From positions 1-23,325 of IMG/VR virus record IMGVR_UViG_3300044951_002183: a stretch of DNA of 23,325 nt; one strand, given 5' to 3'. This DNA comes from a virus. How positions within the stretch are numbered: the first letter of the stretch is position 1; every line of letters starts with the position of its first letter. This document shows positions 1,855 through 11,600 of the stretch, piece by piece. The notes under the pieces are model-generated. The model ran no database searches, was not told the DNA's origin, and saw nothing but the letters and a program-made list of their open reading frames with translations. Made by a program: the position numbers and the translations under genes.

Positions 1855-2306
1855 TGGATTATACCATTACAATTGGTTGTGATCATGCAGGTCTGGAGCT
1901 AGCCCGAGAAATCTCGGTATGGCTCTTTGACTCTGGTCATAAGATCCACACTTTCTTTCCGGCACCAAATACACACGTTGATTATCCAGACTATGCCCAT
2001 AGAACATGTTCTTCCGTTACTCTAGAATCTCACACTACAAGTCGTGGTATTCTGGTCTGTGGTTCTGGTGTAGGCATGGCAATTGCGGCTAATCGACATG
2101 CTGGAATTCGTTGTGTAAATACAAATGATCCAGAGATTGCTAAGATTGCAAGAGAACATAATGATGTAAATGTTCTTGCACTTGGTGCTCGATTTGCATC
2201 TGATAGAGATAAAATCTGGAATTGCATCACTAATTTCCTTCAGACTAAATATGAAGGTGGGCGACATGAACAACGAGTTATGAAACTATTTGGAGTATAT
2301 AAATGA
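1854..2306 (+). CDS. rpiB: Ribose-5-phosphate isomerase B
   Basis: 150 aa, full length for the LacAB/RpiB family. It interconverts ribulose-5-phosphate and ribose-5-phosphate in the non-oxidative pentose phosphate pathway. Visible family marks are the GCDHAG N-terminus (D10, H11), DYPDYA, LVCGSGVGMAIAAN with the catalytic-type Cys69, the EHNDVNVLALGAR block with His102, and the C-terminal YEGGRHEQRV. All match the E. coli RpiB pattern. It overlaps the lipoprotein by 1 base and PstS by 4 bases (ATGA). As a phage metabolic gene it probably feeds ribose-5-phosphate to nucleotide and PRPP synthesis, and hence to NadV encoded at 8466. Family assignment is firm; the metabolic role is inferred. Confidence 0.93.
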   Translation: MDYTITIGCDHAGLELAREISVWLFDSGHKIHTFFPAPNTHVDYPDYAHRTCSSVTLESHTTSRGILVCGSGVGMAIAANRHAGIRCVNTNDPEIAKIAREHNDVNVLALGARFASDRDKIWNCITNFLQTKYEGGRHEQRVMKLFGVYK

Positions 2307-3271
2307 AATTTGTAATTGCAGGCTTAACGGCAACTCTACTGACTACAACAGCACATGCACAAGTACTAAACGGTGCTGGTGCTACATTCCCTGCACCGAT
2401 TTATTCTAAATGGGCAGAAGAATCTAAATCTGCTGGATTTGGAATTAACTATCAAGCAATTGGTTCTGGTGGTGGGCAAAATCAAATCATCAACCGAACA
2501 GTTGATTTTGGAGCATCAGATGCTCCTATGACACTAGAAAAACTAAAACAATATAATCTGTTTCAAGTTCCTACGGTTATGGGATCGGTTGTTGTTATTG
2601 TAAATATTCCTGGTATTGCTACAAATACCTTAAATATTTCTGGGCAAAATCTAGTTGATATTTTCAATGGTAAGATTACCAAATGGAATGATCCAAAGAT
2701 TGTTGTAGATAATCCAAGTTTAAAACTACCTAATATGGCAATTGCACCAGTCTATCGTGCTGATGGTTCAGGTACCACATTTGTGTTTGTTTCATATCTA
2801 CATTCACAAGATAAAGATTTTAGTGTGCCTGCGGTATCAATCAAGTGGAATGCTGGTTCAGGCGCCCGTGGTAATGATGGCGTAGCAGCCACTGTAAAGC
2901 GCATGCCGGGATCAATCGGTTATGTTGAAAAAGTTTTTGCCACAAATAATAATATTCCAACTGCAGTGCTAAAGAGTGCAACTGGAGCTTGGGTAGCACC
3001 TAGCAATAAAAGCTTTATGGCAGCAGTAGCTAAAGCAGATTGGTCGGATACTAATGAAGCAAATGTAATTAATCGCTCTTGTGATGAATGCTATCCTATT
3101 GTATCCGCAACATATGTTCTTATTCCCAAGGACTCTAAGAAGCTAAATGAGATTACAAGTTGGCTAGAATGGGTTTATAAAAATGGAAATGCCTCAGCGA
3201 TTTCCCTTGACTTTATCCCACTTTCGGATTATAATAAGGGTATGGTAATCAAACAACTAAAGAATCAGTAA
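2303..3271 (+). CDS. pstS: Phosphate ABC transporter substrate-binding protein PstS
   Basis: 322 aa, slightly shorter than E. coli PstS. A Sec signal peptide is visible (residues 1-19, cleavage after AHA). The mature protein begins with the PstS hallmark GAGATFPAPIYSKWA. The phosphate-binding segments follow: IGSGGGQNQI, VDFGASDAPM and the DGSGTTFVF loop. The product would bind inorganic phosphate in the host periplasm and hand it to the host PstCAB permease; no permease genes are present here. Phage-borne pstS is known from marine T4-like phages. It is translationally coupled to rpiB. It has no obvious promoter of its own and no Pho-box-like element that I could recognise. Confidence 0.95.
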   Translation: MKFVIAGLTATLLTTTAHAQVLNGAGATFPAPIYSKWAEESKSAGFGINYQAIGSGGGQNQIINRTVDFGASDAPMTLEKLKQYNLFQVPTVMGSVVVIVNIPGIATNTLNISGQNLVDIFNGKITKWNDPKIVVDNPSLKLPNMAIAPVYRADGSGTTFVFVSYLHSQDKDFSVPAVSIKWNAGSGARGNDGVAATVKRMPGSIGYVEKVFATNNNIPTAVLKSATGAWVAPSNKSFMAAVAKADWSDTNEANVINRSCDECYPIVSATYVLIPKDSKKLNEITSWLEWVYKNGNASAISLDFIPLSDYNKGMVIKQLKNQ

Positions 3272-3768: not shown

Positions 3769-4455
3769 ATGTTTTATACTATCTATAAAATTACTAATAA
3801 AATTAATAACAAATATTATGTAGGTAAACATCAAACCAAAAATTTAGATGATAATTATATGGGTTCTGGTAAACTTATCAAAGCAGCCATTAAAAAACAT
3901 GGTAAAGAAAACTTTAAAAAAGAAATATTACATATATTTGATAATGAATTAGAAATGAATACCAAAGAAAAAGAATTGGTTGTAGTAAGTGAATCAACTT
4001 ATAATCTTATTGAAGGTGGTAAGGGTGGGTTTAGTTACATTAATAAAAATAATCTTAAATTACCACTTAATGAAAATAGCAAACAAAAAATAGCAAATAC
4101 TGTCAGAGAACATTGGCAAAATGGTGTTTATGAAAAAAATAAACAAAAGTTAATTAAACAAAATAGAACAATAAAGAAATCTACAAATTTTTCAATTAAT
4201 AAATCTATACTTAAAAAAGCATTAGAACAAGCACAATCTCCCAATGCTGTTATGAAAAGAAAACAGACTTTTATAGAAAATAAACATCAACAAGGATCAA
4301 AAAATTCTCAGTTTAATACCTGCTGGATTAATAATGGTTTTGAAAATAAAAAAATTAAAAAAGATCAACTTGAAATTTATCTTGAACAAAACTGGATAAA
4401 AGGTAGGTTGATCCTTCAAAAGGAAATATATTATGGAAGATATGAAGTTTTGTAA
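3769..4455 (+). CDS. GIY-YIG homing endonuclease (Seg-like, free-standing)
   Basis: 228 aa. The N-terminal GIY-YIG nuclease domain is visible: TIY at residues 4-6, YVG at 17-19 followed by KHQT, then the GSGKLIKAAIKKHGKENF segment (about 32-50) typical of Seg and I-Tev enzymes, and ENLYN-type STYNLIEGGKGGF (about 75-88). The rest is very Lys/Asn-rich, as in DNA-binding tails of homing endonucleases, with a NUMOD-like NSKQKIANTVREHW segment near 104-117. It probably makes double-strand cuts that spread its own gene. It is strikingly more A/T- and Lys/Asn-rich than its neighbours, which fits mobile DNA. Its 3' end overlaps the next gene by 23 bases. Expression is probably delayed by the upstream hairpin. 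Confidence 0.88.
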   Translation: MFYTIYKITNKINNKYYVGKHQTKNLDDNYMGSGKLIKAAIKKHGKENFKKEILHIFDNELEMNTKEKELVVVSESTYNLIEGGKGGFSYINKNNLKLPLNENSKQKIANTVREHWQNGVYEKNKQKLIKQNRTIKKSTNFSINKSILKKALEQAQSPNAVMKRKQTFIENKHQQGSKNSQFNTCWINNGFENKKIKKDQLEIYLEQNWIKGRLILQKEIYYGRYEVL

Positions 4456-4657: not shown

Positions 4658-4686
4658 TTGACAAGCACTAAAGCCTAATATATAAT
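4658..4686 (+). promoter_or_regulatory. Sigma-70-type promoter
   Basis: TTGACA (4658-4663), spacer 17, TATAAT (4681-4686). It serves the gene at 4714 and probably runs into RNA unit A. Confidence 0.87.
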
Positions 4687-5082: not shown

Positions 5083-5141
5083 GGATTTGTTTCAGCAACT
5101 AAAAAAGTTTTTATTGGAAAAAACAAAAACACACCAATCCG
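5083..5141 (+). ncRNA. Array RNA unit A (stem-closed, TTCAGC motif)
   Basis: 5' arm GGATTTG (5083-5089), then T, then TTCAGC (5091-5096), an A-rich interior, and 3' arm CCAATCC (5134-5140) followed by G. Six of the seven terminal pairs form, with one T-C mismatch. It is the only unit upstream of the promoter at 5152, so it would be transcribed from 4658. Same plan as units B-F. Confidence 0.6.
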
Positions 5142-5151
5142 AAAAAATCTA

Positions 5152-5180
5152 TTGACATTGACATAAATCTGGTATATAAT
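5152..5180 (+). promoter_or_regulatory. Promoter of the RNA array and TROVE gene, with doubled -35
   Basis: TTGACA at 5152-5157 is immediately repeated at 5158-5163. TATAAT at 5175-5180 is 17 bases from the first copy. The expected start, near 5187, is about 16 bases before RNA unit B. Confidence 0.87.
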
Positions 5181-5202
5181 ACGCTTATAAATTAAGGAAT
5201 AA

Positions 5203-5255
5203 GGGTTGGGTTCAGCCTATAAAAGCTAATCCAAACAGCAACCAAGTCCAACCCG
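5203..5255 (+). ncRNA. Array RNA unit B
   Basis: Terminal stem GGGTTGG (5203-5209) with CCAACCC (5248-5254), seven perfect pairs. G then TTCAGC follows the 5' arm, and G then CTAACT follows the 3' arm. The interior is 32 nt and C/A-rich after the motif. It is the first unit behind the promoter at 5152. Confidence 0.72.
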
Positions 5256-5264
5256 CTAACTTAT

Positions 5265-5331
5265 AGATTCGTTTCAGCAATCAAATAGCAATTGACCTTG
5301 TAAATCAAAACTGCAAAAAAAAGCGAATCTG
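5265..5331 (+). ncRNA. Array RNA unit C
   Basis: Terminal stem AGATTCG (5265-5271) with CGAATCT (5324-5330), seven perfect pairs. T then TTCAGC inside, G then ATATCT after. The first ~22 interior bases match unit D (CAGCAATCAAATAG against CAGCAAACCAAATAG), so the two are related. The rest is A-rich with no clear internal hairpin. Confidence 0.72.
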
Positions 5332-5339
5332 ATATCTAA

Positions 5340-5441
5340 AGGATGTTTTCAGCAAACCAAATAGTAGCTCATCGGTAGAGCAAAGTGTCCTCAAAACACC
5401 TGGTAGTTGGTTCAAATCCAACCTAAAAAAACAACATTCTG
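5340..5441 (+). ncRNA. Array RNA unit D, with tRNA-like core
   Basis: Terminal stem AGGATGT (5340-5346) with ACATTCT (5434-5440), seven pairs with one G-T. T then TTCAGC inside, G then CTATCT after. The interior holds a near-complete tRNA-like core at 5367-5422. It has D-arm GCTC-ATCGGTA-GAGC, an anticodon-like arm GTGT-CCTCAAA-ACAC (TCA in the anticodon position, C instead of the universal U33), and T-arm GTTGG-TTCAAAT-CCAAC. Unpaired linkers of ~18 and ~11 nt separate the core from the terminal stem, so it is not a normal tRNA. The plan recalls bacterial YrlA Y RNAs, which are tRNA mimics bound by Ro60 proteins. Confidence 0.78.
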
Positions 5442-5458
5442 CTATCTTCTAAGAATAA

Positions 5459-5559
5459 AGAATAGTTACAGCAACATAAAAATCTTCTCTTTGAACAAGA
5501 ACCGTGGTCGTTCGATTCGACCGTTGCGAGGCTGGTGCCAGGAAAAGCATGCTATTCTG
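5459..5559 (+). ncRNA. Array RNA unit E, with T-arm mimic
   Basis: Terminal stem AGAATAG (5459-5465) with CTATTCT (5552-5558), seven perfect pairs. T then TACAGC (one change from TTCAGC) inside, G then TTATCT after. The interior contains a canonical T-arm-like hairpin GGTCG-TTCGATT-CGACC at 5506-5522 and a GC-rich stretch (GGCTGGTGCCAGG). No D-arm is evident. Length is about the same as units D and F. Confidence 0.75.
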
Positions 5560-5571
5560 TTATCTTACTTA

Positions 5572-5672
5572 AGATTAACTTCCGCTAAAAACAATCTCCA
5601 GTCACTTTTTGTGATATCAAAGAACCCAACGATCTGGGCGCAGGTGTGATAACTTGCAGATCGGTTAATCTG
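5572..5672 (+). ncRNA. Array RNA unit F, adjacent to the TROVE gene
   Basis: Terminal stem AGATTAA (5572-5578) with TTAATCT (5665-5671), seven perfect pairs. C then TTCCGC inside, G after. The interior folds into a hairpin GTCAC-TTTTT-GTGAT (5601-5615) and a longer one at 5630-5663 (CGATCT/AGATCG and GCAGGT/ACTTGC, with a GGGC bulge). It ends 20 bases before the start codon at 5693. Confidence 0.72.
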
Positions 5673-5692: not shown

Positions 5693-7120
5693 ATGAACGC
5701 TTTTGCTAAAGCTGCTCTCAATCAAACTACTCGTACCACAAACGGTATGAAGGCTCTAAAGAGCACAACCAATCCATGTGTTGATCTATTCTATAAGATC
5801 GGTGCTTCACGTGGTAAGAATATCCTACCAGACTTTATTGCAGCATATGTTCAAGATAAGGAACTTGCTTGCCGTATTGCTCTATGGGCTCGTGATATTC
5901 GATCCGGTGCAGGTGAACGTGAAATTTTCCGTTCTATTCTTGCATATGTCTCTGATAACGATCCAAATATGGCTTCTCGTCTAGTACTTCGTGTACCAGA
6001 ACTTGGGCGTTGGGATGACGTATTCTCTACTTCTGGTGAAGCACGTAATATTGCTATTGGAATGGTTCGACGTGCTCTTGCAACACGTGATGGTCTAGCT
6101 GCAAAGTGGATGCCACGTAAGGGACCAATTGCTATTGAACTTCGTAATGCTCTAGGTTTCACTCCTAAGCAGTACCGTAAGACTCTAGTCAATCTCTCTT
6201 CTGTTGTTGAGAGCCAGATGTGCGCTAAAGATTGGGATTCTATCAACTTCAATCATGTCCCATCTGTTGCTTCTGCTCGCTATAAGAAGGCCTTCAACCG
6301 TAATACTACCAAGTATAAGGAATGGACATCAAAGCTTGTCAGCACTGATCCTAAGGTTCGTGAAGAAGTCAAGATCAATGCTGGTGCAGTCTATCCTTAT
6401 GATGTACTCAAGGGTAAGATTAGTCACTATCGGACTTCAGCTGGGTACTCTCAAGCAGAACTAAATGCTGTTCGGGCTCAGTGGGAAGCACTACCAAACT
6501 ATATGAATGGTTCAAACGTTCTTCCTCTGGTTGACGTTTCTGGATCCATGACATGCCCAGTTGGTGGTTCTAGCACCACATCTTGCCTTGATGTGGCTGT
6601 TTCTCTTGGTCTGTATTGTGCTGATAAGAATACTGGGGACTTTAAGGACATGTTCCTTACATTCTCTAGTCAACCAGAACTACTAACTCTTCGTGGTAAT
6701 ATCCTACAGAAGATTGATCAGATGATTAAATCTTCATGGGCTATGAGCACCAACATTGTTGCCGCAATGGATCTAATCCTTCACACTGCAGTCAATGGTA
6801 ATGTGCCACAGGAGGATATGCCTTCCACTCTTCTTATTCTTTCAGACATGCAGTTTAATCAATGCGCTCGCTTTGATGGCTCTGCTATGGAAACATTCCG
6901 TCGCAAGTTTACAGATGCCGGTTATACAATGCCAAAGATTGTTTTCTGGAATCTAAATTCACACGACAATGTTCCTGTAAAGGAAAATGAGAATGGTGTG
7001 GCTCTAGTCTCTGGTTTCAGCCCATCTATCCTCAAGTCTATTCTGGCTTCCGATCTAGAACAGTTTACACCAGAGGCAATGATGATGAAGACCCTTATGG
7101 CTGAAAGGTACAATTTCTAA
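5693..7120 (+). CDS. TROVE/DUF2828-like RNA-binding protein with vWA domain (Ro60-type)
   Basis: 475 aa. The N-terminal ~250 residues are helical-repeat-like with TROVE/DUF2828 signatures: DLFYKIGASRGK, ALWARDIRSGAGEREIFRSI (about 63-82), VPELGRWDDVF, and the LSSVVESQMCAKDWDSINFNHVPSVAS block. The C-terminal half is a von Willebrand A domain. Its MIDAS motif DVSGS has metal ligands D281, S283 and S285, followed by LLILSDMQFNQ. Ro60 proteins pair this HEAT-ring plus vWA layout to hold Y RNAs and misfolded RNA ends, and work with RNases such as PNPase. AGGA lies 9 bases before the ATG, and a six-unit RNA array lies directly upstream on the same transcript. DUF2828 and TROVE are hard to tell apart by eye. 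The RNA-binding role is inferred from architecture and context. Confidence 0.82.
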   Translation: MNAFAKAALNQTTRTTNGMKALKSTTNPCVDLFYKIGASRGKNILPDFIAAYVQDKELACRIALWARDIRSGAGEREIFRSILAYVSDNDPNMASRLVLRVPELGRWDDVFSTSGEARNIAIGMVRRALATRDGLAAKWMPRKGPIAIELRNALGFTPKQYRKTLVNLSSVVESQMCAKDWDSINFNHVPSVASARYKKAFNRNTTKYKEWTSKLVSTDPKVREEVKINAGAVYPYDVLKGKISHYRTSAGYSQAELNAVRAQWEALPNYMNGSNVLPLVDVSGSMTCPVGGSSTTSCLDVAVSLGLYCADKNTGDFKDMFLTFSSQPELLTLRGNILQKIDQMIKSSWAMSTNIVAAMDLILHTAVNGNVPQEDMPSTLLILSDMQFNQCARFDGSAMETFRRKFTDAGYTMPKIVFWNLNSHDNVPVKENENGVALVSGFSPSILKSILASDLEQFTPEAMMMKTLMAERYNF

Positions 7121-7391: not shown

Positions 7392-7419
7392 TTGACAACC
7401 ACCACAGGTGGTATATAAT
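7392..7419 (+). promoter_or_regulatory. Promoter of the NAD salvage operon with operator-like palindrome
   Basis: TTGACA (7392-7397), spacer 16, TATAAT (7414-7419). The spacer is almost filled by a perfect inverted repeat ACCACC-ACA-GGTGGT (7398-7412), placed where a repressor would block polymerase. Confidence 0.85.
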
Positions 7420-7452
7420 ATACATATAAATTGTTTCTTAGGAGTTAAGAAC

Positions 7453-8448
7453 ATGAAAACATTAGGCGTATTCATTGGGCGTTTTCAGCCCTTACATGAA
7501 GGTCATATTCAGGCAATCAAGGTTGCCGCTAAGCAAGTAGACCTTCTTCTGGTCCTTATCGGTTCGGCTAATCAGTGCCGTAGCATTAAAAATCCATGGA
7601 CCTATTCAGAGCGAGTTCAGATGTTCCATTCAAAATGGGAACAGATTGACAATCTGATTGACATTCTTCCCCTTAATGACTATCAATACTCCCATACTCA
7701 GTGGATGGCAGATGTACGTGCAAGCGTAGAGTATACCCAAAAGAATTGGGGCATCTATTCACCACCGACTCTTTTTGGTCACACAAAAGATGGTAATGAC
7801 TATCTTAACTGGTTTCCAGATTGGAACTTCAAAAATATTGAAGCCGAATATACAGTAAATGCTACATCTATTCGTGCAAAGATGTTTGCAGAACATGATA
7901 AGCGTATGCCGGAAACGGTCTATCAAGATCATCTGTTCTATAAGAAAGAACAAGAACTGTTTGCAAACTATCCATTCCCTGATACTCTCAACTTCAACTG
8001 CTCTGATGCTGTTCTAGAATGTCAGGGTCATGTTCTTCTAATCCAACGTAAGTTTGCTCCAGGTGCTGGATGTTGGGCTCTACCAGGTGGATTTAGAAAT
8101 AATAAAGAAACTTTTCTTGATTGTGCTATTCGTGAACTTCAAGAAGAAACAAATGTTCGAGTACCAGAAAAAGTTCTTCGTGGCTCTATTGTCAAGACTC
8201 AACTTTTTGATTCACCGTCTCGATCATTTGGCTTGCTAAGGAATACATTAGCAGTCTATATGAGGATCAGTCCAAATCCAGACTATTCTCTACCACGAGC
8301 AAATGGCGCCGATGATGCTGCACTATGTAAATGGGTGCCACTCACTGATGCTCTTAATACATATGAGCTCTATGATGACCATGCTGCTATTATCTCTACT
8401 ATGACTGGTGTTATGCCAATGCCAGCTTTTACCAAACTTAAGAAATAA
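7453..8448 (+). CDS. nadM: Bifunctional NMN adenylyltransferase / Nudix hydrolase
   Basis: 331 aa. The N-terminal nucleotidyltransferase domain has GRFQPLHEGH (residues 9-18), NPWTYSER and a C-terminal SIRAK in the place of the SxTxxR motif. It joins NMN and ATP to make NAD. The C-terminal domain has a Nudix box (GGFRNNKE... RELQEETNV) with the catalytic REx2EE intact and N in place of the usual Gly near its end. This fusion is known from bacteria and as NatV of vibriophage KVP40. The start at 7453 is chosen for AGGAG upstream; the longer frame would begin inside the promoter. NadV follows after 17 bases, so the pair forms a nicotinamide-to-NAD operon. The symbol nadM is used for the NMNAT activity. 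Confidence 0.93.
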   Translation: MKTLGVFIGRFQPLHEGHIQAIKVAAKQVDLLLVLIGSANQCRSIKNPWTYSERVQMFHSKWEQIDNLIDILPLNDYQYSHTQWMADVRASVEYTQKNWGIYSPPTLFGHTKDGNDYLNWFPDWNFKNIEAEYTVNATSIRAKMFAEHDKRMPETVYQDHLFYKKEQELFANYPFPDTLNFNCSDAVLECQGHVLLIQRKFAPGAGCWALPGGFRNNKETFLDCAIRELQEETNVRVPEKVLRGSIVKTQLFDSPSRSFGLLRNTLAVYMRISPNPDYSLPRANGADDAALCKWVPLTDALNTYELYDDHAAIISTMTGVMPMPAFTKLKK

Positions 8449-8465
8449 GATAAGGAGTTTATCTA

Positions 8466-9851
8466 ATGACTATTCTAAAAAATATTCTACTTAATGTTGA
8501 CAGCTATAAAGTTTCAATGTTTGAACAATACCCAGAAGGGACTGAAATTGTTCACAGCTACATTGAATCACGAGGTGGTGAACATCTAGAAACTTTATTC
8601 TTTGGTCTACAGGGTTTCATTAAAGATTATCTTCTAACGCCGGTGACAATGGCAGACATTGATCTAGCAGAAGAAATTATGCAAGCCCATGGTGAACCAT
8701 TTAATCGTGTTGGTTGGGAATATATTGTTACCAACCACGGTGGTAAACTACCAGTCCATATCCGTGCAGTTCCAGAAGGTACTATTGTTCCTGTAAGTAA
8801 TGTTCTACTTACTATTGAAAATACAGATCCAAATTGTTTTTGGTTGACAACACATTTGGAAACAGCTCTGCTTCGTGCAATTTGGTATCCTACAACTGTA
8901 GCAACCAACAGCAAAGCCATCAAGAATCTAATTAAAGGATTCTTAGAAAAGAATGGTGATCCTGCTGGACTTAGCTTTAAACTTCATGACTTCGGTGCAC
9001 GTGGTGTTTCAAGTCAAGAATCCGCTGGAATTGGTGGTGCTGCGCATCTAATTAATTTCATGGGTACTGATACCATTGCGGGTATTCTTTGGGCTCGTGA
9101 GCATTATAATGCAGGCATTGCTGGTTTCTCTATTCCAGCCGCAGAACACAGCACAATTACTAGTTGGGGTCGCCCATATGAAGTAAAAGCATATGAAAAT
9201 ATGCTGAATAAGTTTGCCAAGCCTGGTGCTATTCTTGCTGTTGTGAGTGATAGTTATGATGTATTCAATGCAGCAGAAAATCTCTGGGGTGGTGAGCTGA
9301 AACAAAAGATCATCGACTCTGGTGCTACTCTGGTTATTCGACCAGATTCTGGTGAACCGGTTGCTGTAAATTGTAAACTTATTCAGCTCCTAGATAAGAA
9401 ATTTGGCTCTACAGTAAATGATAAGGGATACCGAGTCCTGAATAATGTTAGATTAATCCAGGGTGATGGGGTCAATTATAACACAGTCAAGGATATCCTT
9501 ACTGTCTTTGATAATAACGGCTACTCTGCTGATAATATTGCTTTTGGTATGGGTGGTGCTCTTCTTCAACAGGTGAATAGGGATACACAGAAATTTGCAA
9601 TGAAATGCTCTGCTGTGCGAATCGGTAAACATGATTGGAGAAAAGTTCTAAAGGATCCTATTACCGATTCAGGTAAGAAAAGCAAAGCAGGTCTACTTGA
9701 ACTGTGGCGTAAAGATAATAAATTTGCCACAAGTGAAACAACACCTGAATTACTCAATGGTTGGAAACATGGACTTGAAACCGTTTACCTTAATGGTAAA
9801 CTAATCCGTGATATGACTTTTGAGGAAATTAGGAACAATTCAAATAGCTAA
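8466..9851 (+). CDS. nadV: Nicotinamide phosphoribosyltransferase
   Basis: 461 aa, the usual NAMPT length. It converts nicotinamide and PRPP to NMN. Family blocks are clear: KLHDFGARGVSSQESAGIGG, AAEHSTITSWG, VSDSYDVFNAAENLWG, LVIRPDSGEP, IQGDGV and NIAFGMGGALLQQVNRDT. GGAG lies 7 bases before the ATG. Together with the upstream NMNAT it rebuilds NAD in two steps. This is the enzyme pair reported for phage NAD reconstitution (NARP2) that counters NAD-depleting defences. It would also support replication simply by maintaining NAD. Transcription ends at the terminator at 9858. Confidence 0.95.
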   Translation: MTILKNILLNVDSYKVSMFEQYPEGTEIVHSYIESRGGEHLETLFFGLQGFIKDYLLTPVTMADIDLAEEIMQAHGEPFNRVGWEYIVTNHGGKLPVHIRAVPEGTIVPVSNVLLTIENTDPNCFWLTTHLETALLRAIWYPTTVATNSKAIKNLIKGFLEKNGDPAGLSFKLHDFGARGVSSQESAGIGGAAHLINFMGTDTIAGILWAREHYNAGIAGFSIPAAEHSTITSWGRPYEVKAYENMLNKFAKPGAILAVVSDSYDVFNAAENLWGGELKQKIIDSGATLVIRPDSGEPVAVNCKLIQLLDKKFGSTVNDKGYRVLNNVRLIQGDGVNYNTVKDILTVFDNNGYSADNIAFGMGGALLQQVNRDTQKFAMKCSAVRIGKHDWRKVLKDPITDSGKKSKAGLLELWRKDNKFATSETTPELLNGWKHGLETVYLNGKLIRDMTFEEIRNNSNS

Positions 9852-10876: not shown

Positions 10877-11191
10877 TCACTGAATTCCAAGCGCATTATT
10901 GTTTTTCCTCCATATGATCCGTGCAGCCTGTTTTACAATACATACACCAGTCATTAATGACCAACCTTCTTGAGCTTCTATTAGGAGTTGGTCACAAATT
11001 AGAGGCTTGAGATTATACACTAGCTTATCCCATTTACTAAGTTCAATATCCTTGAAGGTTTCATCCTTAGATAGGATAATATCATTTCCAAGCTTAGAGT
11101 CAACATAAGAAAGCACTTCTGGTGTTACAAATTGACTATAGTACTCATCAAATGTGCACCGAGTGTAAAGATAATCACGCCTAATATACAT
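10877..11191 (-). CDS. Hypothetical protein downstream of the QV-repeat gene
   Basis: 104 aa (MYIRRDYLYTRCTF...). Start 11191 is chosen: GGA lies 7 bases upstream, and it begins 17 bases after the stop of the QV-repeat gene. A longer open frame (to 11437 or 11482) runs back through the 12-bp repeats as SSQG/SSHG units, but that is most likely the repeat read in a second open frame. It has a Lys/Asp-rich helical centre and an aromatic C-terminal part. Not recognised. Confidence 0.7.
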   Translation of the reverse strand: MYIRRDYLYTRCTFDEYYSQFVTPEVLSYVDSKLGNDIILSKDETFKDIELSKWDKLVYNLKPLICDQLLIEAQEGWSLMTGVCIVKQAARIIWRKNNNALGIQ

Positions 11192-11208
11192 TTTATTATC
11201 CGTTTTAA

Positions 11209-11394
11209 TTATAAGTTTTGATCCAAGATTTGATCCCAGACTTGATCCAAGACTTGAATCCATACTTGATCCCCGACTTGATCCCCGACTTGATCCATGA
11301 CTTGATCCATGACTTGAACCTCGACTTGATCCATGACTTGAACCCTGACTTGAACCCTGACTTGAACCCTGACTTGACCCAAGACTTGCTTCAT
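11209..11394 (-). CDS. QVxD tandem-repeat protein
   Basis: 61 aa made almost wholly of four-residue repeats, Q-V-x-D/V, about fourteen of them (GQVRVQV... DQVWIQVLDQVWDQ). The DNA is a 12-bp tandem repeat. The x codon is always NNG, with its first two bases freely varying (TTG, AGG, ATG, GAG, GGG, TGG); the rest is nearly fixed. The start is strongly supported: TAATG overlap with the upstream stop and GGAG 8 bases before the ATG. Phages often carry such DQVxDQV proteins, with no known function. A degenerate relative is at 656-835. The same DNA is also open as SSQG repeats in another frame. Confidence 0.72.
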   Translation of the reverse strand: MKQVLGQVRVQVRVQVRVQVMDQVEVQVMDQVMDQVGDQVGDQVWIQVLDQVWDQILDQNL

Positions 11395-11600
11395 TAAATT
11401 GGCTCCAGTTCCCAACGTTGGCTGATGACTTGCTCATGTGTAATCCAGCGCATATCAGCTTTAGGATCATCCTTAGGAACAATAAGAAGTTTAGATGTGT
11501 CTAAGAAATGGGATTGCACAATCCATTCCTCACCAAAGCGCTTAATTGCACCACGTTCTGTGTTTCGAGTAGGTTTCCATTTAACAAATTTAGTCGACAT
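11394..11600 (-). CDS. Small basic hypothetical protein
   Basis: 68 aa, beginning MSTKFVKWKPTRNTERG, with W at several positions and a WITHEQV segment near the end. It overlaps the upstream gene's end by 11 bases and its own stop overlaps the next start (TAATG), so it sits in a tightly coupled run. AGGT lies about 7 bases before the ATG. No family is recognised. Confidence 0.68.
   Translation of the reverse strand: MSTKFVKWKPTRNTERGAIKRFGEEWIVQSHFLDTSKLLIVPKDDPKADMRWITHEQVISQRWELEPI

What the first reader, a model, noticed from the sequence alone, without database searches (positions are those of the whole stretch)
5083..5672. Array of six stem-closed RNAs directly upstream of a phage Ro60-like gene
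Seen directly: six consecutive units (A-F), each bounded by its own 7-bp inverted pair. The arms differ in sequence between units but always pair (GGGTTGG/CCAACCC, AGATTCG/CGAATCT, AGGATGT/ACATTCT, AGAATAG/CTATTCT, AGATTAA/TTAATCT; unit A with one mismatch). That is strong covariation. One base inside each 5' arm sits TTCAGC (TACAGC in E, TTCCGC in F). Every 3' arm is followed by G, and in B-E by GNTAWCT. Established: Ro60/TROVE proteins bind Y RNAs whose 5' and 3' ends pair, and bacterial Y RNA genes usually lie beside the Ro60 gene. Inference: this is a multi-copy phage Y-RNA-like family bound by the protein at 5693, with the stem plus TTCAGC as recognition site. The usual bacterial Y motif (GGUCCGA/UUGACC) is not obvious, so the family would be new. 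Alternative: tRNA-like decoys for host anticodon nucleases.
Basis: partly seen in the sequence, partly recalled or inferred. Interest (0 to 1): 0.92.

Follow-up and report, generated by a model that had tools for sequence, protein, structure and literature searches.

The report
Phage Y-RNA-like array beside Ro60 gene
Many bacterial viruses that carry a relative of the Ro60 RNA-binding protein also encode nearby rows of small folded RNAs, all closed by a changing but always matching 7-base-pair stem and carrying the same short tag (CAGCAA); they are probably the protein's partner RNAs, and they look unexpectedly like an RNA class thought to exist only in social amoebae.

Summary
The six units are real and belong to a large, unnamed RNA family. 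Their grammar is a 7-bp covarying end stem, three bases, CAGCAA (or CCGCAA), a variable interior, then G(U) after the 3' arm. In related IMG/VR loci, 106 of 309 motif sites have a perfect partner arm (105 followed by G), against a mean of 4 with swapped arms. A covariance model finds units in named phages of Vibrio, Cronobacter, Pseudomonas, Stenotrophomonas, Listeria and Mycobacterium that were not used in training, and in none of seven control phages below E=1e-3. In contigs over 100 kb, all 23 hits lie within 13 kb of the DUF2828 gene on its strand. The protein folds like Ro60/Rsr. Long units often carry tRNA-like domains, some circularly permuted as in bacterial YrlA (Rfam YrlA 39-46 bits, below threshold). 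Best reading: a Y-RNA-like partner family of the phage Ro60, with interchangeable effector modules. Binding and discrete RNAs remain untested. The ends also resemble dictyostelid Class I RNAs (AG...CAGCAA...CUGU; Rfam RF01414 in register but below threshold), which could mean a shared ancient RNP.

The parts
4658..4686 (+). sigma-70 promoter, 12/12 consensus (TTGACA-17-TATAAT); would drive the 4714 ORF and unit A
5083..5141 (+). unit A (arms 5083-5089 and 5134-5140, one mismatch; G at 5141)
   Evidence: model R1 35.1 bits, E 6.8e-7, not in training
5152..5180 (+). sigma-70 promoter, 12/12 consensus, in front of units B-F and the DUF2828 gene; promoter region conserved in L003
5203..5255 (+). 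unit B, 53 nt, stem GGGTTGG/CCAACCC + G
5265..5331 (+). unit C, 67 nt, stem AGATTCG/CGAATCT + G
5340..5441 (+). unit D, 102 nt, stem AGGATGT/ACATTCT + G, encloses a tRNA-like domain
5362..5425 (+). tRNA-like domain in unit D: D, anticodon and T arms, acceptor stem reduced to about 3 bp
   Evidence: Rfam tRNA 35.1 bits, gathering 29; not called by ARAGORN
5459..5559 (+). unit E, 101 nt, stem AGAATAG/CTATTCT + G, encloses a T-arm-like hairpin (GGTCG TTCGATT CGACC)
   Evidence: T-stem compensated in L003
5572..5672 (+). unit F, 101 nt, stem AGATTAA/TTAATCT + G, structured interior (z -2.5)
5693..7120 (+). Ro60-like protein, 475 aa (DUF2828 + DUF7788/vWA with MIDAS D281xS283xS285), proposed partner of the RNAs

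Best explanation
The array encodes a set of Y-RNA-like noncoding RNAs that partner the phage Ro60 homologue at 5693. Shown: units with a covarying 7-bp end stem and a CAGCAA tag just inside the 5' arm; a family found across distant phages with the Ro60-like gene and clustered near it; a Ro60 fold for the protein; tRNA-like, often circularly permuted, interiors in part of the family. Inferred: units B-F are transcribed from the consensus promoter at 5152, cut out of the transcript between the stems, and bound through stem + CAGCAA to the Ro60 ring, while the different interiors act as exchangeable effector modules (tRNA mimics in D and E, other folds in B, C and F) that tether or occupy host or phage RNA-handling proteins, as YrlA-type Y RNAs do.
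For: Pairing and covariation far above chance, including compensatory changes between orthologous units. R1 hits untrained DUF2828 phages at E 7.7e-11 to 4.7e-5 (S13, KVP40, Lumos, Astolliot, DLP6, A511), 20/20 IMG/VR records (some trained), and 0/7 control phages below 1e-3 (five of them checked to lack PF11443; the best control hit, phiKZ, starts inside an apparent ORF). All 23 hits in contigs over 100 kb are within 13.1 kb and on the gene's strand. Fold match to D. radiodurans Rsr 2nvo E 1.5e-7 and TROVE 9kop TM 0.53. Permuted tRNA domains in 9 units, 0/5756 control windows. YrlA matches to whole units L046:1220-1337 and in Lumos, 39.3 bits each.
Against: No expression or binding data for this phage. 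YrlA matches stay below the gathering score (69) and rest on the tRNA-like part; no window unit matches YrlA. The end region of YrlA does not align with the phage ends. Protein homology to Ro60 is visible by fold only, and domain placement in the model is uncertain (TM 0.36 to 2nvo). Some trained units come from contigs later scanned. In several phages the units are kilobases from the gene, within tRNA islands that could bring any small RNA together.
Confidence: 0.8

Rival explanations
1. The units are tRNA-like decoys or sponges that occupy host anticodon nucleases or other tRNA-targeting defences, independent of the Ro60 homologue.
For: tRNA-like interiors in D and E and in many long units, with selection on T-stems; arrays sit in tRNA islands; competitive inhibition of an anticodon nuclease was proposed for YrlA (PMC7790460).
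Against: Half of the 200 units are 75 nt or shorter with no tRNA-like part yet share stem and tag; decoying does not explain CAGCAA or the tie to DUF2828.
Confidence: 0.1
2. The region is a structured leader or processing element of the DUF2828 mRNA, for example for autoregulation or RNase sites.
For: In the window units B-F lie between a strong promoter and the gene on the same strand.
Against: Units lie downstream of the gene in wV8, BE22, KP13-16 and Lumos and up to 13 kb away elsewhere; unit number varies (two extra units in L003); interiors are unrelated to each other.
Confidence: 0.05
3. The units are degenerating tRNA genes, remnants of a phage tRNA island.
For: 7-bp end stem followed by one unpaired base resembles an acceptor stem with discriminator; tRNA-like remnants in D and E.
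Against: Decay would not keep 7-bp complementarity with compensatory changes nor an almost fixed CAGCAA tag that tRNAs lack.
Confidence: 0.02

Closest known systems
Bacterial Y RNA YrlA (Rfam RF02553) with Rsr/Ro60; reported near Ro60 in many bacteria and some phages (Chen et al. 2014, title and abstract from memory; cited in PMC12282133)
   Same: Ends pair to form the stem, gene close to a Ro60-fold gene, permuted tRNA-like domain (T arm, closed acceptor, D arm) in part of the units; sub-threshold model matches 39-46 bits
   Different: Below the 69-bit gathering score; different tag next to the stem (CAGCAA); stem sequence free to vary; multi-copy arrays in which most RNAs lack the tRNA-like domain
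Dictyostelid Class I RNAs (Rfam RF01414; PMC7919456)
   Same: Covarying end stem, tag beside the 5' arm (CCUUACAGCAA in Dictyostelium), 3' CUGU, A before the first G, about 60 nt, multi-copy with variable interiors; RF01414 hits in register in KVP40, Listeria, Staphylococcus and the window
   Different: All hits below gathering score (best 27.4 of 41.5); tag 4 bases from the stem in Dictyostelium and 3 in phages; eukaryotic promoter element; the proven binder Rnp1A is an RRM protein; the high-GC mycobacteriophage units do not hit RF01414
Phage tRNA gene arrays
   Same: Location, size range, tRNA-like folds
   Different: No functional acceptor or normal anticodon context; shared tag; permuted domain order

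Membership tests
Ro60/Rsr (TROVE + vWA) for the 5693 protein | Ro60 fold | tested here: met
   Foldseek top hits 2nvo (E 1.5e-7, prob 1.00) and 9kop TROVE domain (E 3.2e-7, TM 0.53); model pLDDT 74.7
Ro60/Rsr (TROVE + vWA) for the 5693 protein | MIDAS metal site DxSxS | tested here: met
   D281, S283, S285 and D385 invariant in 40 homologues
Ro60/Rsr (TROVE + vWA) for the 5693 protein | Pfam TROVE domain by sequence | tested here: not met
   Only DUF2828 and DUF7788 match; no Ro60 hit by sequence in PDB
Bacterial Y RNA / YrlA (RF02553) | Rfam gathering score | tested here: not met
   Best 46.0 bits of 69; no window unit listed
Bacterial Y RNA / YrlA (RF02553) | 5' and 3' ends pair | tested here: met
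Bacterial Y RNA / YrlA (RF02553) | Gene near a Ro60-fold gene | tested here: met
Bacterial Y RNA / YrlA (RF02553) | (Permuted) tRNA-like domain in at least one RNA of the set | tested here: met
   9 permuted units in the family plus Lumos; in the window unit D is tRNA-like in normal order and E has a T arm
Bacterial Y RNA / YrlA (RF02553) | Bound by Ro60; tRNA-type modifications | not testable with these tools
   needs biochemistry
Dictyostelid Class I RNA (RF01414) | Rfam gathering score | tested here: not met
   Best 27.4 of 41.5 bits, KVP40 unit
Dictyostelid Class I RNA (RF01414) | Covarying end stem with 3' CUGU | tested here: met
   C79 U80 G81 (U82) in A2; CTG ends in the window's C, D, E and F; definition from PMC7919456
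Dictyostelid Class I RNA (RF01414) | 11-nt motif CCUUACAGCAA beside the 5' arm | tested here: inconclusive
   CAGCAA in 153/200 units, spacing 3 instead of 4; some Staphylococcus units read CUUACAGCAAU exactly
Dictyostelid Class I RNA (RF01414) | DUSE promoter and developmental function | not tested
   eukaryotic feature, not applicable to phage
tRNA (RF00005), unit D only | complete cloverleaf with 7-bp acceptor joined to it | tested here: not met
   Rfam 35.1 bits over positions 5-66 of 71; ARAGORN makes no call

The most novel reading that the evidence does not exclude
Phage DUF2828-associated RNAs and dictyostelid Class I RNAs are one ancient RNA class: partner RNAs of Ro60-type (DUF2828/TROVE-vWA) proteins recognised by AG...CAGCAA...CUGU. 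DUF2828 homologues in amoeba-type giant viruses would be a route between the two worlds. Class I RNAs, held to be unique to social amoebae, would then be eukaryotic Y-RNA relatives.
Probability: 0.25. Interest if true: 0.92.

Novelty: new variant of a known kind. Interest (0 to 1): 0.82.

Why it matters
At least 682 deposited phage genomes carry this Ro60-like gene, mostly annotated as hypothetical or RNA-binding. A shared, recognisable RNA grammar for its partners makes phage Ro60 function testable at once in laboratory phages (Felix O1-like wV8, mycobacteriophage Lumos), and gives a set of Y-RNA-like molecules with exchangeable modules on one scaffold. Circularly permuted tRNA mimics in so many phages point to a tRNA-handling protein as target. 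If the dictyostelid link holds, it would give Class I RNAs a protein partner and an origin.

Tried and rejected
DNA similarity search of the array against phages found only the coding part and a tRNA-Trp. Single-sequence structure prediction failed (pLDDT 42.9), replaced by an alignment-based model. Sequence search of the protein in PDB gave nothing relevant. A scan of bacterial and archaeal species genomes with the window protein found no relative, so no cellular host copy was available for comparison; that scan reaches close relatives only. The idea that the hugely expressed RNA of Listeria phage CKA15 is this family was rejected: it is ROOL, and the real units lie closer to the gene. Individual folding energies are not informative (z -0.3 to -2.5); the case rests on covariation. 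The phiKZ control hit was looked at and starts inside an apparent ORF. Papers on Class I RNA binders (Avesson 2011), Chen 2014 and the 2020 Ro60 review were not held.

Full report
WHAT IS THERE. Each has two 7-nt arms that pair, one base, then T[T/A]C[A/C]GC, and G after the 3' arm. Unit A has one mismatch and D one wobble. Two consensus-perfect sigma-70 promoters (12/12) lie at 4658-4686 and 5152-5180; the second precedes units B-F and the gene, so unit A belongs to the upstream transcript. In the relative L003 (protein 86% identical) this promoter region and units B-F are conserved, and two further units lie between E and F.

IS IT MORE THAN CHANCE. In 81 sequences around IMG/VR homologues and the window, the strict grammar gives 121 units on the coding strand, 1 on the other strand and 5.2 in dinucleotide shuffles. 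Holding motif sites fixed, 106 of 309 have a perfect partner arm downstream and 105 of these are followed by G; with arms swapped among sites the means are 4.0 and 1.6, and the effect appears only when exactly one base separates the arm from TWCMGC. In alignment A2 (39 short units from many phages) all seven pairs change on both sides; covariation score 0.858 against 0.228 shuffled and at most 0.179 slid. Units in A2 were chosen because they pair, so 100% pairing is by construction; the swapped-arm test and the orthologue comparison are the independent evidence. Between the window and L003, D goes from AGGATGT/ACATTCT to AGGATGG/CCATCCT and E from AGAATAG/CTATTCT to GGAATAA/TTATTCC, and the T-stems inside D and E also change in a paired way.

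HOW WIDE IS THE FAMILY. Model R1, trained with window units B and C, finds all six window units. On 13 whole named DUF2828 phages, 12 have a hit at E up to 0.5 and ten below 1e-3; of those ten, six gave no training sequence: S13 7.7e-11, KVP40 2.6e-7, Lumos 1.5e-6, Astolliot 2.5e-5, DLP6 2.6e-5, A511 4.7e-5. CP81 and Enterococcus A2 carry units by direct pairing next to the gene. Seven control phages give nothing below 1e-3 (T4, phiKZ, SPO1, 44RR2.8t, S-PM2, T5, K); five of them were checked and lack PF11443. The best control hit (phiKZ, 0.0095) starts inside an apparent ORF. Twenty of 20 IMG/VR records have hits; in the eight contigs over 100 kb (1.59 Mb) all 23 hits are on the gene's strand and within 13.1 kb of it, and ten are within 1.5 kb. 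With the spacer relaxed, 200 distinct units with 76 different arms are seen in 93 of 110 loci, including some short control fragments; the core is CAGCAA in 153, length 41-204 nt, 106 of them 75 nt or shorter; consecutive units are often only 8-9 nt apart.

INTERIORS. Three kinds recur. (1) Short units with a weak hairpin. (2) tRNA-like: unit D matches the tRNA model with D, anticodon and T arms in normal order (35.1 bits); nine units in Klebsiella KP13-16, E. coli wV8, Cronobacter S13 and IMG/VR phages hold a circularly permuted domain, T arm then a closed 7-bp acceptor hairpin then D arm, against 0 of 5756 control windows; Lumos has one too. (3) Long 150-175 nt units with a conserved TTGAAGG element and partly covarying internal helices.

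THE PROTEIN. Pfam gives DUF2828 and DUF7788, PHROGs an RNA-binding family. The alignment-based model (pLDDT 74.7) matches D. radiodurans Rsr 2nvo (E 1.5e-7) and a TROVE structure 9kop (E 3.2e-7, TM 0.53) first among 350,542 chains. The MIDAS residues are invariant. Low TM to 2nvo (0.36) probably reflects uncertain placement of the two domains.

MECHANISM. Ro60/Rsr proteins bind Y RNAs by the stem formed by their ends, and the other part of the RNA recruits an effector (established knowledge); in D. radiodurans Y RNA tethers Rsr to PNPase (PMC7790460). The phage units have the same anatomy, and whole tRNA-like units align to the YrlA model end to end (39.3 bits). The shared parts of all units are exactly the end stem and CAGCAA, so these are the likely contact for the shared protein, while interiors vary freely and are the likely effector modules. 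This step is inference. Whether effectors are host RNases, tRNA-modifying enzymes or anticodon nucleases is open.

MEMBERSHIP. The protein is a Ro60-fold protein but not a TROVE-domain protein by Pfam sequence score. The RNAs work like Y RNAs by architecture and genomic association, but are not members of RF02553 by its score, and the end region differs. Hence: new variant of a known kind. Y RNAs near Ro60 in some phages were reported before (Chen et al. 2014, known here only from its title and abstract by memory and from the citation in PMC12282133); what is new is the common grammar, the arrays, the breadth and the mostly tRNA-free members.

THE DICTYOSTELID RESEMBLANCE. Rfam RF01414 (Class I RNA) appears below threshold, always in register with the 5' end of a unit: window A, C, D (E 0.14-2.3; for A the model pairs the 5' arm with a later 3' segment), L091 (0.077, 0.55), L100 (0.25, 1.2), KVP40 (27.4 bits, E 0.04) and S13 (E 7.2), L010 (E 4.3), L046 (0.91). 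No RF01414 hit fell outside a unit in any scan, including 57 kb of loci. PMC7919456 describes Class I RNAs as: a conserved A before the invariant first G, 6-bp covarying end stem, motif CCUUACAGCAA, 3' CUGU, about 60 nt, and found only in dictyostelids. The phage ends read AG...CAGCAA...CUGU. Among 6871 chance 7-bp end stems on the opposite strand, 5 have CAGCAA at that place, 18 end in CTGT and none has both. Against: scores are below the gathering cut-off, the tag is one base nearer the stem, both sides are A/U-rich, units are related so hits are not independent, and Lumos short units do not hit. I give common identity 0.25.

LIMITS. No expression data for this phage, no binding data. E-values from R1 are rough. 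Loci come from a capped similarity search, so diversity is uneven.

Noticed in passing
L100:3708-4259 (Listeria phage CKA15, OR088597.1): The extremely abundant noncoding transcript CKA15_059-061, which its discoverers tentatively called Y RNA or sRNA (PMC12282133), is covered end to end by a ROOL RNA match (RF03087, 90.1 bits, gathering 99.1, E 2e-18). The Y-RNA-like units are instead at L100:4902-5165, just before CKA15_055.
   Followed up: partly
L100:5239-6759: The DUF2828/Ro60-like protein CKA15_055 was found by mass spectrometry in purified virions (20 peptides, 57% coverage; PMC12282133), so the RNP may be packaged and delivered.
   Followed up: no
L083:5878-6120 (Cronobacter phage S13): Deposited tRNA-Ser and tRNA-OTHER genes partly overlap unit 5929-6048, which holds a permuted tRNA-like domain; the calls look like artefacts made of halves of units.
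   Followed up: partly
L003:2604-2868: Two extra units sit between the orthologues of E and F: recent gain or loss of whole units in the array.
   Followed up: yes
window 7408-9851: A NadM-Nudix-like gene and a NAMPT/NadV gene (NAD salvage) follow directly after the Ro60-like gene and tRNA-Trp; the Stenotrophomonas phage DLP6 has similar genes near its homologue.
   Followed up: no
window 3769-4455: GIY-YIG homing endonuclease gene upstream of the array, which may mobilise the region.
   Followed up: no
window 2303-3271: Phosphate-binding PstS-like protein (PBP_like_2) carried by the phage.
   Followed up: no
window 10877-11482 (minus strand): ORF with a run of Gly-Ser-Ser-x repeats (GSSQGSSHGSSRGSS...) of unknown function.
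   Followed up: no
giant viruses (BFVD hits): DUF2828/DUF7788 homologues with the same fold occur in Pithovirus, Marseillevirus and Mimiviridae relatives; whether they have units nearby could not be checked.
   Followed up: no
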